NCBI RefSeq assembly: GCF_028735875.1
Contig: NZ_CP117834.1
Span: 1,910,001 to 1,974,000, forward strand
Source: Shouchella hunanensis
GTDB taxonomy: Bacteria > Bacillota > Bacilli > Bacillales > Bacillaceae_D
Direction: 5' to 3'
Length of the DNA stretch: 64,000 nt
Positions 38,933 through 44,634 of this stretch are shown here, piece after piece. A model generated the notes under the pieces. That model saw only the letters and a program-made list of their open reading frames with translations. It made no database searches and was not told where the DNA came from. A program made the position numbers and the translations under genes. Positions within the stretch are counted from its first letter, which is position 1. Each line of letters begins with the position of its first letter.

Positions 38933-39081
38933 TTGAATTATATAGAGAGTGTGAGTAAGCGTCAACTCTTTTTTGAAAATAAAGATAAAAAGGACCGATT
39001 AAAGGAAAACAGCTCTTCATCACGAAAAGTATTTGTATAGAGTACGGTTAGAAATACAGTGTTGTTGTAAAGGAGGGGAAG

Positions 39082-40365
39082 ATGGTGAATTCAAATCGAA
39101 TGGTCATACGACATGCACGTCAGCTCGTAACAAATGAAGCGAGTCGTCCGTTAAAGGGACGTGAAATGGAAACAAATCTTAAAGTAATTGAAGATGGTGG
39201 CGTATGGATTGAGAATGGATTAATTAAAAAAGTGGGAACGGATAAAGAGGTGTGGAAAGCGGTATGTGATCATGGACAAACGAAGCTTGTGACATTGATT
39301 GATGCAAGTCAGCATCTTGTTACGCCTGGTCTTGTTGATCCCCATACACATTTAGTGTTTGCAGGTAGTCGTGAAGATGAATTTGAAATGCGGTTACAAG
39401 GTGCGGCTTATATGGACATTATGAATGCAGGTGGAGGCATTCATCGTACAACGTCAGCAACAGCAGCAGCGACTGAAGAGGAACTAATGGCTGTTGGTAA
39501 AGAAAGGCTTGATCTCTTTTTACGTCATGGAGTGACAACCATTGAAGCAAAGAGTGGGTATGGACTGTCATTAGAAAATGAACGCAAGCAATTGGTAGTA
39601 GCAAAACGCTTGAATGCCATTCACCCTGTCACAATTGTATCAACCTTTATGGGGGCTCACGCTGTTCCGGAAGAATATAAAACAAATCAAGATACGTTCG
39701 TAGATAGGATTGTAGATAACATGATTCCTTCCATAGCGAGGGAAGGCTTGGCTCGATTTAATGATGTTTTTTGTGAAAAAGGCGTATTTACACCTGAACA
39801 ATCTAAGCGCATTTTAGAAGCTGGAAAAGCACACGGACTCATTCCGAAAATACATGCTGATGAAATCGTTTCGTATGGTGGGGCAGAGCTTGCTGCAGAC
39901 GTTGGCGCCATCTCTGCAGATCATCTTTTGAAGGTTTCTGATGAAGGGATAGAAAAAATGGCGGCTAAAGGTGTCATTGGTGTATTACTACCTGCAACTG
40001 CATTTTTCTTAATGGAACAACCAGCAAATGCTCGAAAAATGATTGCTAGCAATGTTGCTGTGGCACTGTCAACAGACCGAAATCCAGGGTCAAGCCCAAC
40101 TGAATCAATGCCGTTTGTCATGAACTTAGCTTGTTTAACAATGGGAATGACACCCAAAGAAGTTCTTACTGCGGCAACAATAAATGCTGCGAGTGCTATT
40201 GGCGAAGAACAAGTAGTTGGAAGTTTGGAACCGGGAAAAAGAGCTGATCTTGTGTTTTGGAATGCACCAAATTATACGTATTTACAATACCATGTTGGCG
40301 TCAATATGGTAGACAAAGTGTTTAAAGACGGCAAGCTTGTTGTTACGAATGGAGTAGTCATTTAA
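39082..40365 (+). CDS. hutI: Imidazolonepropionase (HutI)
   Basis: 427 residues of the amidohydrolase superfamily. Metal and substrate motifs: VDPHTHLVFAG (His-x-His, ~residue 85), TTIEAKSGYGLSLENE, KIHADEI (His ~250) and LSTDRNPGSSPTESMP (Asp ~325). Converts imidazolonepropionate to N-formimino-L-glutamate. Ribosome site AAGGAGGGG. First gene of a four-gene operon with hutU; no hutH in this window. Confidence 0.95.
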   Translation: MVNSNRMVIRHARQLVTNEASRPLKGREMETNLKVIEDGGVWIENGLIKKVGTDKEVWKAVCDHGQTKLVTLIDASQHLVTPGLVDPHTHLVFAGSREDEFEMRLQGAAYMDIMNAGGGIHRTTSATAAATEEELMAVGKERLDLFLRHGVTTIEAKSGYGLSLENERKQLVVAKRLNAIHPVTIVSTFMGAHAVPEEYKTNQDTFVDRIVDNMIPSIAREGLARFNDVFCEKGVFTPEQSKRILEAGKAHGLIPKIHADEIVSYGGAELAADVGAISADHLLKVSDEGIEKMAAKGVIGVLLPATAFFLMEQPANARKMIASNVAVALSTDRNPGSSPTESMPFVMNLACLTMGMTPKEVLTAATINAASAIGEEQVVGSLEPGKRADLVFWNAPNYTYLQYHVGVNMVDKVFKDGKLVVTNGVVI

Positions 40366-40386
40366 CTCGTTAAGGGGGCTAATTTA

Positions 40387-42060
40387 ATGAAGAAACAAAC
40401 TGGACAGCGCACAGTACGTGCACCAAGAGGGAATCAGTTGCAATGCAAGGGATGGGCTCAAGAAGCTGCAATGCGGATGCTGCTTAATAACCTTGATCCA
40501 GAAGTTGCTGAAGACCCTGACCACTTGATTGTCTATGGTGGAATCGGTAAGGCGGCTCGGGATTGGAGAAGTTTTGACCAGCTTATTGCTTCATTAAAAG
40601 AGCTAGATAATGATGAAACGCTCCTCGTACAGTCTGGCAAACCAGTGGGATTGTTCCGCACCCATGAAGCTGCACCAAGAGTGTTGATTGCTAACTCTAA
40701 CTTAGTTCCATCGTGGGCAACCTGGGATCACTTTTATGATCTTGAGGAGAAAGGGTTAATGATGTACGGTCAAATGACAGCTGGAAGTTGGATTTATATT
40801 GGAGCGCAAGGCATATTACAAGGCACGTATTTAAGCTTTATTGAAGCAGGAAAGAAAGCGTTTGGAACGCCAGATTTAACAGGTCGTTTTATTGTAACTG
40901 GCGGGATGGGCGGAATGAGCGGTGCCCAGCCATTAGCAGGAAAAATGGCAAACGCTGTTATTCTTGTGGTCGAGGTCGATCGATCTCGAATTGAAAGGAA
41001 GATGAAAGAAGGTTACTGTGATGTTCTCGTTGAGTCGTTAGACGAAGCACTAAAGCTTGTTGAAAAGTTCACTTCTAGTGGTCAGCCAGCTTCAATTGGT
41101 CTTGTAGGAAATTGTGCTGATGTGCTGCCGGCGCTTGTAGAAAAAGGGGTGACCCCGGACTTTGTTACCGACCAAACAAGCGCCCACGATCCTCTGAACG
41201 GGTATGTTCCAAATGGGTTAACCCTTGCTGAAGCGAATGAATTAAGAGAAAACGATCCGAAAGCATACGAAAAGCGCTCGATTGAAGCGATGGGGAAGCA
41301 TGTGCAAGCTATGCTTGATTTACAAAAAGCAGGAGCAGAAACATTTGATTACGGCAACAATATCCGCGCCTATGCAAAACAAGCAGGTGTCAGCAATGCA
41401 TTCCATATTCCTGGATTTGTACCAGCGTACATTCGACCTTTGTTTTGTGAAGGAAAAGGTCCCTTTAGATGGGCAGCCCTTTCAGGAAACCCAGAGGATA
41501 TATACACATTGGATCGACTTGCTTTAGAAATGTTTCGTGAAGATGAAGGTTTAGTGAACTGGATTAGAATGGCTCAAAAAATGGTGAAGTGGCAAGGCCT
41601 ACCGGCGCGAATTTGTTGGCTTGGCTATGGCGATCGTGATCGTTTTGCTCTAAGGGCTAATGAGATGGTTGCTAGTGGCGAACTGGAAGCACCAATCGTG
41701 TTTGGACGTGACCATCTTGATTGTGGCTCTGTAGCATCGCCAAATCGCGAAACAGAAGGAATGAAAGATGGCAGTGACGCTGTTGCAGATTGGCCCATTT
41801 TAAATGCTTTAATTAATACGGCTGGAGGGGCAAGCTGGGTTAGCGTTCACCATGGTGGCGGTGTCGGTATGGGCTATTCCGTTCATGCAGGACAAGTTCT
41901 AGTGGCTGATGGCAGTCAGTTAGCGAAGGAGCGGATAAAACGAGTGTTGATTTCAGATCCTGGTATGGGAATCGTTCGACACGTAGATGCAGGCTATGAT
42001 CGTGCATTGGATGTAGCAAATGAAAAAGGCGTTCATATTCCGCTTAAGAAGGGTGATTAA
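40387..42060 (+). CDS. hutU: Urocanate hydratase (HutU)
   Basis: 557 residues, the usual urocanase length. NAD-binding [13 protein letters not shown] (~175) and conserved [15 protein letters not shown] around residue 355-370 near the catalytic region, [13 protein letters not shown] and [11 protein letters not shown] at the C-terminus. Adds water to urocanate to give imidazolonepropionate. Lies 21 bp after hutI. Confidence 0.96.
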
Positions 42061-42061
42061 G

Positions 42062-43321
42062 ATGAATGTAAAAACAGTAACCATTAATGGGAAAAGGTTA
42101 AGCAACTCCATTCATGAATTAAGTCAATTTGGACAGAATGATGGAGGTGGATTAGATCGTACAACGTTTACCGATTCAGAGCTGAAGGCACGAGACTGGT
42201 TAAAAGAACAATTGAGCAAACTTAATGTGCACGTGCATACTGATGAAGCAGCAAATATATGGGGAAAACGTGTCGGCCAAAAGAAGAGAAGCATTGTGTG
42301 TGGCTCTCATATTGATACGGTTCCGAATGGAGGGAAATTCGACGGGGCTCTCGGCGTATTAATTGGGTTAGAAATATTGCGCACATTAGAAGAAAACGAA
42401 ATTGAAACCGAACACGATGTTGAGTTAGTATCTTTTAGTGCCGAGGAGCCGAACCCGTTTGGTCTCTCGACTTTTGGGAGTCGTGCAATGGCTGGAAAAC
42501 TAACGGCAGAACAGATAAAAGGGGTTAGAAATGCAGATGGTATGAGGCTTATCGATGCGTTAGAAAGGGCTGGTGGCAACGCTGCACAATTTGATCACTG
42601 TGTGCGAAGAGAAAACGATCTGCTAGCTTATCTTGAAGTTCATATTGAACAAGGTAAGCGTTTAATAGACGCTCAAGTACCTCTTGGAATAGTAACGGGG
42701 ATTACAGGAATTTATCGTGAAGAGCTAACGATAAAAGGGGTTCCGAATCATGCAGGCACAACCGTAATGACAGATCGTACCGATGCCCTTGTAGCTGCAG
42801 CAGAATTGATTCTAGCAGTAAAGAATGTCTGCACGGATTTCCCAAAAGCCGAACTTGTTGGAACAGTTGGACAAATACACGTTTTGCCGAACGCTACCAA
42901 CATTATTCCTGGAGAAGTGGTACTAGCAGTAGAGATTCGAGGAGAGAAAACCGAGGATTTGCAAAAAGTTCAACAGGAGCTTCAAGAGAAAAAAGCTTAT
43001 GTAGAAACAACTTATGGTGTTCAGATCGAGACAAAAGTAAGGCTGAATCAAGCTCCTGTAGCAATGAGTGAAAACGTCATGACTGTCATGGAACGACAAG
43101 CAGAAATTGGAGGGTTTCCTACGATGCGCTTGGGCAGCATGGCGGGTCATGATGCAGCTCATATGGCATCTCTTACGTCTGCTGGAATGATCTTTGTTCC
43201 TAGTGTAGCTGGAAAAAGTCACTGCCCTGAAGAAGAAAGTAAGATGGAGGATATTGAAAAAGCTGCAAATGTTTGTTTGCGTACGCTTTTGGAGATTGAT
43301 CGAGAAGGAGGAAGTATGTGA
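42062..43321 (+). CDS. M20-family amidase (N-carbamoyl amino acid/allantoate amidohydrolase-like) in the hut operon
   Basis: 419 residues from ATG 42062, one base after the hutU stop (AAGAAGGGTGATTAAG upstream). Two-zinc ligands of the family are intact: VCGSHIDTVPNGGKFDG (His, Asp), FSAEEPNPFG (Glu), YLEVHIEQG (His) and GKSHCPEEE (His near the C-terminus). Relatives remove carbamoyl or similar groups from amino acids. Here it probably replaces HutG by removing formyl (or formimino plus amide) from the glutamate derivative; this is inference from operon position. Overlaps the next gene by one base. Confidence 0.85.
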   Translation: MNVKTVTINGKRLSNSIHELSQFGQNDGGGLDRTTFTDSELKARDWLKEQLSKLNVHVHTDEAANIWGKRVGQKKRSIVCGSHIDTVPNGGKFDGALGVLIGLEILRTLEENEIETEHDVELVSFSAEEPNPFGLSTFGSRAMAGKLTAEQIKGVRNADGMRLIDALERAGGNAAQFDHCVRRENDLLAYLEVHIEQGKRLIDAQVPLGIVTGITGIYREELTIKGVPNHAGTTVMTDRTDALVAAAELILAVKNVCTDFPKAELVGTVGQIHVLPNATNIIPGEVVLAVEIRGEKTEDLQKVQQELQEKKAYVETTYGVQIETKVRLNQAPVAMSENVMTVMERQAEIGGFPTMRLGSMAGHDAAHMASLTSAGMIFVPSVAGKSHCPEEESKMEDIEKAANVCLRTLLEIDREGGSM

Positions 43322-44634
43322 TGATACTGTATCATGCAGATTCAGTCTATACGAACGGCGCGTTTCAAAAAAACTACGCAGTGCTCGTAAAGGGTGATGT
43401 CATTCACGATATTGGTCCTTTTGACAAATTAATTGAAACCTATCGCGAGGTCTCAAAGATCGAATGGGCAGGAAAAGCGATTGTTCCAGGGACTGTGAAT
43501 GCCCACAATCATTCGTTTCAAAGCTTGTTAAGGGGGATAGCTGTAGACCGGCCATTTTTAGAATGGCGTGATCAAGCGCTTTACAAGTATACGCCTCTTT
43601 TAGACGAAGAAGCGATTTATACAGGTGCGCTATTCGCATTTGGAGAAATGGTAAAGTACGGTGTAACAACAGTAAGTGATTTCTTTTATGTACATAACAA
43701 TGGAGTGAAAACAGATGAAGCCGTGATTCAAGCGGCTATAGACGTTGGTATTCGCTTAGTATTTGCTAGAACCATGTATGATTGGGATGGGGCACCATCA
43801 AGTTATCAAGAGTCTGTAACAGATGCTACGAAGCGTACGAGGGAACTAGCGATTAAGTATCAGAATCATCCTATGGTTGATGTTCATCCAGCTCCTCACA
43901 GTCCCCATGCTGCTTCTCCAGAAATGATTCAAGCAGGTCATAAACTAGCCAAAGAATTGCAAACCCCTTTTCATATACATGTTTCGGAGGAAATGTTTGA
44001 AGTGGAGGAAACGTTAGAGAAATATAATAAACGACCGGTTCATTATTTAGATTCATTAGGAGTCGTGGATGAAAGCATGCTAGCTATCCATTTGGTTTGG
44101 CTCGATCAATCAGAAATTGATTTGCTTGGAAGCAAAAAGACTGGCCTTGCTTATTGTCCATCAAGCAATATGTTTCTTTCAGATGGCATTACTCGCATAC
44201 CTGAACTTGTACGTTCTGGCGTACGCGTTAGTCTTGGGAGCGATGGAGCATGTAGTAATAATCGAATAAGCGTATTTGAAGAGATGCGTATGTGCTCACT
44301 GTTACAAAAGGTAAAAACTCTTGATGGCACATGCATGACAGCAGATCAAGTTTTTCAGATGGGAACGAAAAATGGTGCTGACTTATTGCAAGTAGATACA
44401 GGCGAGCTTGTGATTGGCAAAAAAGCGGATTTCCTTGCAGTAGACACAAGCGACCTTTCTCTTTTGCCAAAGCATGAGCTCTTCGCAAATCTTGTTTACG
44501 CAATGCAGCCAACAGCCATCACAGATGTCGTTGTAGCAGGTAAATCAGTGGTACAAAACAGAACCGTGCAAACCGTTTCTGAACAGATGATTGTTAAAAA
44601 GGTTGATCATCTATTTGAAAAGTGGGGAACCTAA
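43321..44634 (+). CDS. Amidohydrolase, candidate formimidoylglutamate deiminase (HutF-like)
   Basis: 437 residues from ATG 43321 (GGAGG nine bases upstream), overlapping the previous stop. ATZ/TRZ-like amidohydrolase: VNAHNHSFQSLLRG (His-x-His ~60), TPFHIHVSEE (His-x-His ~215), AIHLVWL (His ~250) and LGSDGACSNN (Asp ~305). The EMVKYGVTTVSDFFYVHN stretch resembles HutF, while the CPSSNMFLSDG section is closer to general deaminases, so substrate is uncertain. In this operon the natural role is deimination of N-formiminoglutamate. Confidence 0.75.
   Translation: MILYHADSVYTNGAFQKNYAVLVKGDVIHDIGPFDKLIETYREVSKIEWAGKAIVPGTVNAHNHSFQSLLRGIAVDRPFLEWRDQALYKYTPLLDEEAIYTGALFAFGEMVKYGVTTVSDFFYVHNNGVKTDEAVIQAAIDVGIRLVFARTMYDWDGAPSSYQESVTDATKRTRELAIKYQNHPMVDVHPAPHSPHAASPEMIQAGHKLAKELQTPFHIHVSEEMFEVEETLEKYNKRPVHYLDSLGVVDESMLAIHLVWLDQSEIDLLGSKKTGLAYCPSSNMFLSDGITRIPELVRSGVRVSLGSDGACSNNRISVFEEMRMCSLLQKVKTLDGTCMTADQVFQMGTKNGADLLQVDTGELVIGKKADFLAVDTSDLSLLPKHELFANLVYAMQPTAITDVVVAGKSVVQNRTVQTVSEQMIVKKVDHLFEKWGT

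What the first reader, a model, noticed from the sequence alone, without database searches (positions are those of the whole stretch)
39082..44634. Histidine operon with M20 amidase and HutF-like amidohydrolase in place of HutG
Order hutI, hutU, M20 amidase, amidohydrolase with one-base overlaps indicates one pathway. The usual ends are HutG formiminoglutamase or HutF plus N-formylglutamate deformylase. Here the deiminase role would fall to the ATZ/TRZ-like enzyme, and the deformylase role to an M20 amidase, a family known for N-carbamoyl, not N-formyl, amino acids. If true this is an unlisted way to finish histidine breakdown. No hutH or hutP is nearby.
Basis: partly seen in the sequence, partly recalled or inferred. 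Interest (0 to 1): 0.7.

Follow-up and report, generated by a model that had tools for sequence, protein, structure and literature searches.

The report
Two-gene ending for histidine breakdown
In Shouchella and many related Bacillota, the last step of histidine breakdown seems to be done not by the usual single enzyme but by a pair of unrelated hydrolases encoded side by side in the same operon; part of the idea was raised in 2011 but not confirmed, and it is now easy to test.

Summary
The four genes are real and tightly packed: hutI, hutU, an M20 carbamoylase-family amidase and an ATZ/TRZ amidohydrolase. The window's complete genome has hutH elsewhere, but no HutG over cut-off, no PF05013 deformylase and no formiminotransferase. 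Best reading: a two-step ending, in which the ATZ enzyme deiminates formiminoglutamate (HutF-like) and the M20 enzyme deformylates N-formylglutamate. Support is comparative. (1) In 42 GTDB loci holding the pair, 39 carry hutU, 39 hutI, 30 hutH, and none a HutG-type or PF05013 gene in the fetched stretch. (2) Of 398 Bacilli genomes, 15 have this ATZ clade and hutU but no HutG hit; 135 of the other 208 hutU genomes have one, and 26 of 26 sampled from the remaining 73 have another HutG-like gene, 24 beside hutU or hutI. (3) All 51 distinct ATZ sequences keep four HutF substrate residues that 0 of 19 paralogues keep together; a fifth, Arg209, is His. A Geobacillus L-carbamoylase reportedly prefers N-formyl substrates, which weakens the chemical objection. 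No enzyme activity is shown here.

The parts
39070..39078 (+). likely ribosome-binding site AAGGAGGGG of hutI
   Evidence: read from sequence
39082..40365 (+). hutI, imidazolonepropionase, 427 aa
   Evidence: TIGR01224 483.2 bits over cut-off 298.15
40387..42060 (+). hutU, urocanate hydratase, 557 aa
   Evidence: TIGR01228 923.6 bits over cut-off 375; thiourocanate hydratase models under their cut-offs
42062..43321 (+). M20 hydantoinase/carbamoylase-family amidase; proposed N-formyl-L-glutamate deformylase. The longest ORF starts at 42020, but the junction with hutU favours the ATG at 42062 (residues numbered in this report from the codon after it)
   Evidence: TIGR01879 360.5 over 204 and NF006771 438.7 over 399; AlphaFold model pLDDT 87, first Foldseek match by E-value L-N-carbamoylase 3n5f; clade of 46 ATZ-linked and 7 other rows, SH-aLRT 99
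43321..44634 (+). ATZ/TRZ-type amidohydrolase; proposed N-formimino-L-glutamate deiminase. Alternative GTG start at 43318 (residues numbered in this report from that GTG)
   Evidence: PF01979 216.9 bits; HutF model TIGR02022 203.3, under its cut-off 413; HutF substrate residues Q68, R84, Y124, H194 in 51 of 51 distinct sequences

Best explanation
This is the lower half of a complete histidine pathway whose last enzyme, HutG, has been replaced by two hydrolases. HutH (encoded elsewhere on the chromosome) makes urocanate, HutU makes imidazolonepropionate, and HutI opens it to N-formimino-L-glutamate. The ATZ/TRZ enzyme then removes the imino nitrogen as ammonia, giving N-formyl-L-glutamate; its metal site and four of the five HutF substrate-binding residues support this. 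The M20 enzyme then hydrolyses the formamide to L-glutamate and formate, with a carbamoylase-type metal centre and the family arginine that holds the alpha-carboxylate. The overall chemistry equals the Pseudomonas HutF + PF05013 route. The deformylase is unrelated in sequence family to that of Pseudomonas, and the deiminase is at most a distant relative of HutF. Shown here: gene content, linkage, exclusivity with HutG-type genes, position in the operon, and conserved residues. Inferred: both substrates, both activities, and growth on histidine by this route.
For: Linkage: of 49 GTDB loci with M20 at 45% identity or more, 42 carry the ATZ gene (41 within 200 bases downstream); of the 42, hutU is in 39, hutI in 39, hutH in 30, and HutG-type arginase-family (two references), PF05013 or classical HutF genes in 0 at E<=1e-15 in the fetched stretch. 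Exclusivity: in 398 Bacilli genomes the ATZ clade is in 15, all with hutU, and 0 of 15 have a TIGR01227 hit at E<=1e-65, against 135 of 208 other hutU genomes (Fisher p = 4e-7). Of the 73 remaining, 26 were sampled: 26 of 26 have a HutG-like gene of the Priestia type at E<=3e-70, against 0 of the 15 ATZ genomes (best 3e-28; 12 have none at 1e-20). Slot: in 24 of the 26 that gene lies beside hutU or hutI; L163 reads regulator-hutU-hutI-arginase family-transporter where L045 reads regulator-hutU-hutI-M20-ATZ-transporter. Genome: no PF05013, no PF02971, no HutG over cut-off; hutH present. Residues: HutF-type Q, R, Y, H and metal ligands in 51 of 51 distinct ATZ sequences and 5 of 5 HutF, the quartet in 0 of 19 paralogues. 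Chemistry: the best sequence match among solved M20 proteins, 3n5f, is a G. stearothermophilus L-carbamoylase; a 2020 review reports that an L-carbamoylase of that species favours N-formyl over N-carbamoyl amino acids.
Against: No activity is measured. A related prediction was tested once and failed: no deformylase activity in a Streptomyces avermitilis COG0624 protein. The ATZ protein is under the HutF cut-off (203 of 413 bits); its model matches isocytosine and adenosine deaminases better (TM 0.87-0.88) than HutF (0.83); and HutF Arg209 is His in all 51. The genome holds two arginase-family proteins without equivalog assignment (L035, L037), either of which could in principle act on formiminoglutamate; L035 is 31% identical to the Priestia HutG-like protein. 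Two more of the 15 ATZ genomes, G276 and G061, have such a distant hit (28% and 26%); that of G276 is the SpeB-like gene directly beyond ATZ in L152. L079, with the pair but without hutU or hutI, has a SpeB-like gene nearby. Seven M20 relatives of this clade lie outside hut and lack ATZ.
Confidence: 0.75

Rival explanations
1. The M20 enzyme alone is a new formiminoglutamase: it hydrolyses N-formimino-L-glutamate directly to glutamate and formamide (or ammonia and formate), and the ATZ enzyme acts on a side product.
For: The M20 clade has its own invariant set near the catalytic motifs (EEPN, R199, M359, H366, C387; 46 of 46); the S. avermitilis protein showed no deformylase activity; 7 of 49 scan loci have the M20 without ATZ.
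Against: All 7 scan loci with M20 but no ATZ also lack hutU and hutI in the fetched stretch, and 14 of the 15 ATZ genomes of the census have M20 next to ATZ, the 15th being cut by a contig end. The ATZ enzyme carries the HutF substrate residues, so a deiminase is at hand.
Confidence: 0.08
2. The pair handles hydantoin-5-propionate and N-carbamoyl-L-glutamate, as in the lower ergothioneine pathway, rather than formiminoglutamate.
For: The M20 scores 430 bits against the ErtE N-carbamyl-L-glutamate amidohydrolase model (cut-off 520). A Rhizobium plasmid cluster that looks like ergothioneine breakdown carries an M20 at 38%.
Against: The ErtE cut-off is not met; HutI and true HutU are present, so formiminoglutamate is expected to be made; the amidohydrolase of the Rhizobium cluster gives no significant alignment with the window's ATZ (best E 0.59); the Rhizobium M20 lacks most of the clade signature.
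Confidence: 0.08
3. The operon degrades a modified urocanate or another imidazole, with hut enzymes recruited; histidine itself goes another way.
For: hutH is not in this operon; three relatives carry a second urocanase-like gene at about 50% identity (L042, L043, in pieces in L049), and L089/L090 have a urocanase at only 37-38%.
Against: hutH is in the fetched stretch of 30 of 42 related loci, upstream on the same strand in 28; the window's HutU is far over the urocanase cut-off and under the thiourocanate ones; HutG-type genes are missing where the pair is present.
Confidence: 0.05
4. An arginase-family protein elsewhere (L035) is the real formiminoglutamase, and the pair is accessory or relates to purines or allantoate.
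For: L035 scores 139 bits on the HutG model without reaching its cut-off of 229.
Against: L035 is only 30-31% identical to the hut-linked arginase-family protein of Priestia megaterium, is closest to chains named 'probable agmatinase 2', and its 10 kb stretch shows no hit to the four operon proteins; 12 of the 15 ATZ genomes have no such hit at E<=1e-20. The M20 is under the AllC cut-off (250.8 of 597.75).
Confidence: 0.04

Closest known systems
Pseudomonas/Rhizobium two-step hut route, HutF + N-formylglutamate deformylase (PF05013)
   Same: Same predicted intermediates and products; deiminase and deformylase encoded with the hut genes (L135; route described in PMC5343134, passages).
   Different: The deformylase is an M20 metallo-amidase and not PF05013; the deiminase is 27% identical to a Rhizobium HutF, is under the HutF cut-off and has His for Arg209.
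SEED prediction 'alternative form of N-formylglutamate deformylase' (COG0624; Gerdes et al. 2011)
   Same: Same predicted role for the same broad family, drawn from the histidine-degradation subsystem.
   Different: That work tested a Streptomyces avermitilis protein and found no deformylase activity. Whether that protein belongs to the clade described here was not tested, because I obtained no actinobacterial locus with hutU, M20 and a deiminase.
Bacillota one-step route, HutG (COG0010 arginase family)
   Same: Same operon framework: regulator, hutU, hutI, transporter (L163, L164).
   Different: One gene there, two unrelated genes here; no genome of the census had both the ATZ clade and a HutG hit at the thresholds used.
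ErtE, N-carbamyl-L-glutamate amidohydrolase
   Same: Second-best NCBIfam model for the M20 (430 bits) and an N-substituted L-glutamate as substrate.
   Different: Under its cut-off of 520; different neighbours.
Geobacillus stearothermophilus L-N-carbamoylase (3n5f)
   Same: Best match among solved proteins by sequence and first by Foldseek E-value (8c46 has the higher TM-score, 0.88); an L-carbamoylase of this species is reported to act on N-formyl amino acids.
   Different: No hut link known to me; lacks the clade motif EEPN, as read from the alignment.

Membership tests
HutI / HutU (upper pathway) | score over the NCBIfam equivalog cut-off | tested here: met
   TIGR01224 483.2 over 298.15; TIGR01228 923.6 over 375
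HutF, formimidoylglutamate deiminase | TIGR02022 or NF006681 cut-off | tested here: not met
   203.3 of 413.05 and 260.5 of 362 bits
HutF, formimidoylglutamate deiminase | metal site: two His of the HxH motif, third His, Asp, and the His beside the water | tested here: met
   H63, H65, H221, H258, D309 in 51 of 51 distinct sequences; roles recalled from the P. aeruginosa structure, paper not held
HutF, formimidoylglutamate deiminase | Gln61, Arg82, Tyr121, His206 (carboxylate binding; numbering and roles recalled) | tested here: met
   Q68, R84, Y124, H194 in 51 of 51; 5 of 5 HutF; together in 0 of 19 paralogues, where R84 is Leu in 19 of 19
HutF, formimidoylglutamate deiminase | Arg209 (side-chain carboxylate; recalled) | tested here: not met
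   His in 51 of 51; Arg in 5 of 5 HutF
HutF, formimidoylglutamate deiminase | activity on N-formimino-L-glutamate | not testable with these tools
   needs enzyme assay
N-formylglutamate deformylase, PF05013 | PF05013 domain | tested here: not met
   absent from the M20 protein and from the whole genome
M20 hydantoinase/carbamoylase family | TIGR01879 cut-off and conserved catalytic residues | tested here: met
   360.5 over 204; E127, E128, Q196, N279, R292, H386 conserved in at least 95% of 101 rows
Allantoate amidohydrolase AllC | TIGR03176 cut-off | tested here: not met
   250.8 of 597.75
ErtE N-carbamyl-L-glutamate amidohydrolase | NF058540 cut-off | tested here: not met
   430.1 of 520
HutG formiminoglutamase (arginase family) | TIGR01227 cut-off anywhere in the genome | tested here: not met
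   three arginase-family hits, 139.1, 131.3 and 82.2 bits, cut-off 229.15; one is agmatinase over its own cut-off; best hit to the Priestia HutG-like protein 31%, 3e-28
Gerdes 2011 COG0624 'alternative deformylase' | orthology to the tested S. avermitilis protein | not tested
   that protein was not at hand, and no actinobacterial locus with hutU, M20 and a deiminase was obtained

The most novel reading that the evidence does not exclude
The M20-ATZ pair is an independently assembled two-enzyme ending of histidine breakdown in Bacillota: a HutF-like active site re-tuned (Arg209 to His) within the ATZ/TRZ deaminases, plus a true M20 N-formyl-L-glutamate deformylase. The latter is shared with N-methylglutamate-type gene clusters, so the M20 clade would be a general N-C1-glutamate hydrolase that overturns the 2011 negative verdict on the family.
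Probability: 0.5. Interest if true: 0.62.

Novelty: new variant of a known kind. Interest (0 to 1): 0.55.

Why it matters
It would fill a hole in histidine catabolism of Shouchella, Paenibacillus, Cohnella and other Bacillota that have hutU and hutI, often hutH, but no HutG, and would replace the general 'allantoate amidohydrolase' and 'TRZ/ATZ hydrolase' models that score best on these proteins with a defined role. It would also reopen a prediction listed as experimentally invalidated in 2011, with culturable non-pathogenic hosts (Shouchella, Paenibacillus) in which both genes can be deleted and both enzymes assayed.

Tried and rejected
Considered and set aside: chance adjacency (the pair recurs and excludes HutG-type genes); classical HutG elsewhere; PF05013 deformylase elsewhere; formiminotransferase route; thiourocanate or ergothioneine reading; allantoate or purine reading (AllC cut-off missed). 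The fold comparison did not single out HutF for the ATZ enzyme and is told as evidence against. The ATZ tree grouped hut-ATZ with HutF apart from 19 paralogues (88/92), but the HutF branch is very long (6.1), so kinship is left open. Promoter and terminator counts were not above shuffles. Literature searches for a published M20 deformylase in hut operons (also 13, 55, 98 for side questions) showed only Gerdes 2011 among the titles and abstract beginnings listed and the papers opened (PMC4447125, PMC3223725, PMC5343134, PMC7431475, PMC5466576, PMC10952681); two searches listed 20 of 64 and 20 of 73 papers, the library holds open-licence papers only, and Bender 2012 was not held.

Rows dropped: in the M20 tree, 17 loci were left out (L039-L048, L050, L055, L094-L098), most being repeats or near-repeats of loci kept or broken or partly aligned genes, but L041, L043 and L045 are distinct Shouchella-group loci that could have stayed; two more had in-frame stops (L021, L110). 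In one search, four loci with an ATZ match of 400 residues or fewer were left out (L077, L095, L098, L102). In one search, locus L191 (fragment). The 57 ATZ rows hold six repeats, hence 51 distinct. Of the 73 hutU genomes lacking both HutG and ATZ hits, 26 were looked at, chosen from those whose hutU position was printed. The GTDB scan returned 80 of 222 confirmed relatives, best first, and its query was built from hut-linked M20 proteins, so that set leans to hut loci; the census does not depend on it. The HutG threshold of E 1e-65 and the ATZ threshold of 1e-110 were my choice.


Full report
WHAT IS THERE. The window lies in a complete 4.06 Mb genome, one contig, at G000:C1:1910001-1974000. 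The nearest named genome met is Shouchella miscanthi AK13: its M20 shows 100% identity, and its hutI, hutU and ATZ show 99-100%. Four genes run on the + strand: hutI 39082-40365, hutU 40387-42060, an M20 amidase (ATG 42062) to 43321, and an ATZ/TRZ amidohydrolase (ATG 43321) to 44634. Junctions are 21 bases, one base, and a one-base TGATG overlap, as expected of one transcript. HutI and HutU pass their curated cut-offs. The M20 passes the broad hydantoinase/carbamoylase model and one 'allantoate amidohydrolase' subfamily model, but neither AllC nor ErtE. The fourth protein passes none of the NCBIfam cut-offs shown.

THE REST OF THE GENOME. hutH is present 0.68 Mb away (713.7 bits, cut-off 539.15). 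There is no PF05013 N-formylglutamate deformylase, no PF02971 formiminotransferase and no HutP; the same searches rang in Caulobacter, Thermotoga and Bacillus subtilis controls respectively. Three arginase-family genes match the HutG model below cut-off. One is agmatinase over its own cut-off; L035 (316 aa) and L037 (400 aa) reach no NCBIfam cut-off. L035 is 30-31% identical to a hut-linked arginase-family protein of Priestia megaterium and is nearest to solved chains named probable agmatinase 2. So the three known endings of the pathway are missing over cut-off, with L035 and L037 as the residual doubt.

LINKAGE IN RELATIVES. A GTDB scan with the M20 alignment kept the best 80 of 222 confirmed relatives. 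There is a gap between loci at 46% identity or more (49, all Bacillota) and those at 40% or less (31). Of the 49, 42 carry the ATZ gene, 41 within 200 bases downstream on the same strand. Of the 42, hutU is found in 39, hutI in 39 and hutH in 30, while HutG-type arginase-family proteins (two references), the PF05013 deformylase and classical HutF are found in 0 at E<=1e-15 in the stretch fetched. hutH lies upstream on the same strand in 28, and in those 28 the reference matches on the + strand run hutH-hutU-hutI-M20-ATZ, sometimes with other genes between. Of the 7 without ATZ, none has hutU or hutI; of the 31 distant loci, none has ATZ, hutU or hutI. The scan query was built from hut-linked proteins, so this set leans towards hut loci.

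CENSUS INDEPENDENT OF THE M20. In 398 genomes drawn from the class, hutU matched in 223, the ATZ clade at E<=1e-110 in 15 and HutG (TIGR01227) at E<=1e-65 in 146. All 15 ATZ genomes have hutU. HutG is in 0 of these 15 and in 135 of the other 208 hutU genomes (Fisher p = 4e-7); relatedness among genomes makes this p optimistic. Of the 73 hutU genomes with neither, I looked at 26. A whole-genome search with the Priestia HutG-like protein found a match at E<=3e-70 (41 to 69% identity) in 26 of 26, and none better than 3e-28 in the 15 ATZ genomes: G000 3e-28 (L035), G276 1e-24, G061 1.5e-21, and nothing at 1e-20 in the other 12. In 24 of the 26 the gene lies next to hutU or hutI; in G430 and G189 (L169, L219) it lies elsewhere. 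So each of the 176 hutU genomes examined in this way (15 + 135 + 26) has either the ATZ clade or a HutG or HutG-like gene, never both at these thresholds; 47 of the 73 were not looked at. Regions were fetched for all 15 ATZ genomes; 14 have M20 directly upstream of ATZ, and in the 15th (L207) ATZ begins about 200 bases from a contig end. One-step and two-gene endings share a slot: L163 and L164 read regulator-hutU-hutI-arginase family-transporter, and L045 reads regulator-hutU-hutI-M20-ATZ-transporter.

THE ATZ ENZYME. Aligned with HutF, the metal ligands and the residues that bind the substrate carboxylates in P. aeruginosa HutF (Gln61, Arg82, Tyr121, His206; roles and numbering recalled from the published structure, paper not held) are Q68, R84, Y124 and H194. 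They are present in 51 of 51 distinct hut-ATZ sequences and 5 of 5 HutF. Of 19 ATZ-type paralogues from related genomes, none has the four together, and R84 is Leu in all 19. The fifth HutF residue, Arg209, is His in all 51. R316, invariant here and Arg in 2 of 5 HutF, is a possible substitute (inference). The protein is 27% identical to a Rhizobium HutF and under the HutF cut-offs. Its model (pLDDT 85) is closer to isocytosine and adenosine deaminases (TM 0.87-0.88) than to HutF (0.83). A tree groups it with HutF at 88/92, with a very long HutF branch. It works like HutF, as far as residues tell, but is not a member by the curated test.

THE M20 ENZYME. ATZ-linked M20 proteins form part of one clade of 53 rows (46 ATZ-linked, 7 not; SH-aLRT 99). 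Catalytic residues of the family are kept, and the ATZ-linked rows share a fixed set: W66, A126, P129, N130, S135, R199, Y217, Q329, M359, H366, C387 (46 of 46). Residues named in the R. radiobacter enzyme as holding the carbamoyl group and the carboxylate (Glu131, Gln196, His385, Arg291; passages of PMC10952681) have likely counterparts in conserved positions of similar number (E127 or E128, Q196, H386, R292; the two proteins were not aligned here). The best match among solved proteins is 3n5f, a G. stearothermophilus L-carbamoylase, by sequence and by Foldseek E-value; the R. radiobacter enzyme 8c46 has the higher TM-score of 0.88. A 2020 review states that with the G. [quoted passage not shown] that this is the 3n5f protein is my inference from the species. 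Deformylation therefore needs no new chemistry. Five of the seven clade members of the tree without ATZ (L059, L060, L062, L067, L070) lie in a cluster with a glutamine-synthetase-like protein, a three-part glutamate-synthase-like set and an FAD oxidoreductase, which resembles N-methylglutamate gene sets (recalled). This is a second hint that the clade acts on N-substituted glutamate.

PRIOR ART. Gerdes et al. 2011 (PMC3223725, section 15 and passages read) list, under 'Experimental - Histidine Degradation', COG0624 as 'Alternative form of N-formylglutamate deformylase' with no deformylase activity detected in a Streptomyces avermitilis protein, among families invalidated by them. The idea is therefore not new. 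New here, as far as the searches went, are the Bacillota pair, its exclusivity with HutG-type genes, the shared slot, the HutF-like but non-HutF deiminase, and a clade signature. The 2011 negative could reflect a different clade or a metal effect (the R. radiobacter relative purified with zinc but was most active with manganese); both are inference.

VERDICT. It is a new variant of the known two-step route, not a new kind of pathway.

Noticed in passing
L059, L060, L062, L067, L070: M20 proteins of the same clade lie in a conserved cluster M20-GATase-GXGXG-glutamate synthase-glutamine synthetase-like-FAD oxidoreductase (IclR regulator in four of the five), resembling N-methylglutamate gene sets; what M20 does there is unexplained.
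   Followed up: partly
L042:3789-5444, L043:4474-6192, L049: A second urocanase-like protein, about 50% identical to HutU, and an AraC-type regulator sit between hutU and M20 in three Shouchella-group genomes; the L042 copy passes TIGR01228 and is under the thiourocanate models.
   Followed up: partly
L151:8683-18001: The M20-ATZ pair lies in a longer cluster with proteins that look by eye like aconitase X, histidinol dehydrogenase, a hydroxyacid dehydrogenase and an ABC transporter, near a divergent urocanase piece; perhaps another imidazole substrate.
   Followed up: no
L089:4597-6615, L090:4648-6702: In Terrilactibacillus the urocanase of the operon is only 37-38% identical to HutU, although hutH, hutI, M20 and ATZ are 53-68% identical to the references.
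   Followed up: no
L037:4491-5693 (G000:C1, about 973 kb): A 400-aa arginase-family protein with an N-terminal extension sits between two decarboxylase-like genes, next to a further gene and an ABC exporter (by eye): possibly a peptide-modifying cluster.
   Followed up: no
L035:4601-5551 (G000:C1, about 1177 kb): Arginase-family protein reaching no NCBIfam cut-off, closest to solved 'probable agmatinase 2' chains; function open, a residual doubt for the hut reading.
   Followed up: partly
L052:1657-10066 (Rhizobium sp. SL42 plasmid): Cluster of an aromatic-lyase-like protein, amidohydrolase, M20, S-Me-THD (DUF917) protein and urocanase-like protein that looks like ergothioneine breakdown.
   Followed up: no
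L049 / L095 (Bacillus sp. JCM 19041): ATZ, the second urocanase, the AraC regulator and, less clearly, M20 appear in pieces in this draft assembly; draft errors or a decaying copy.
   Followed up: no
L152:4777-5718: A SpeB-like arginase-family gene (36-37%) lies directly beyond ATZ in one hut operon; its role beside the pair is unknown.
   Followed up: no
L159-L169, L208-L222: Many Bacilli hutU genomes carry a HutG-like arginase-family protein that did not reach the TIGR01227 threshold used (26 of 26 sampled, 24 beside hutU or hutI), so the HutG model seems to miss a large HutG-like group.
   Followed up: partly
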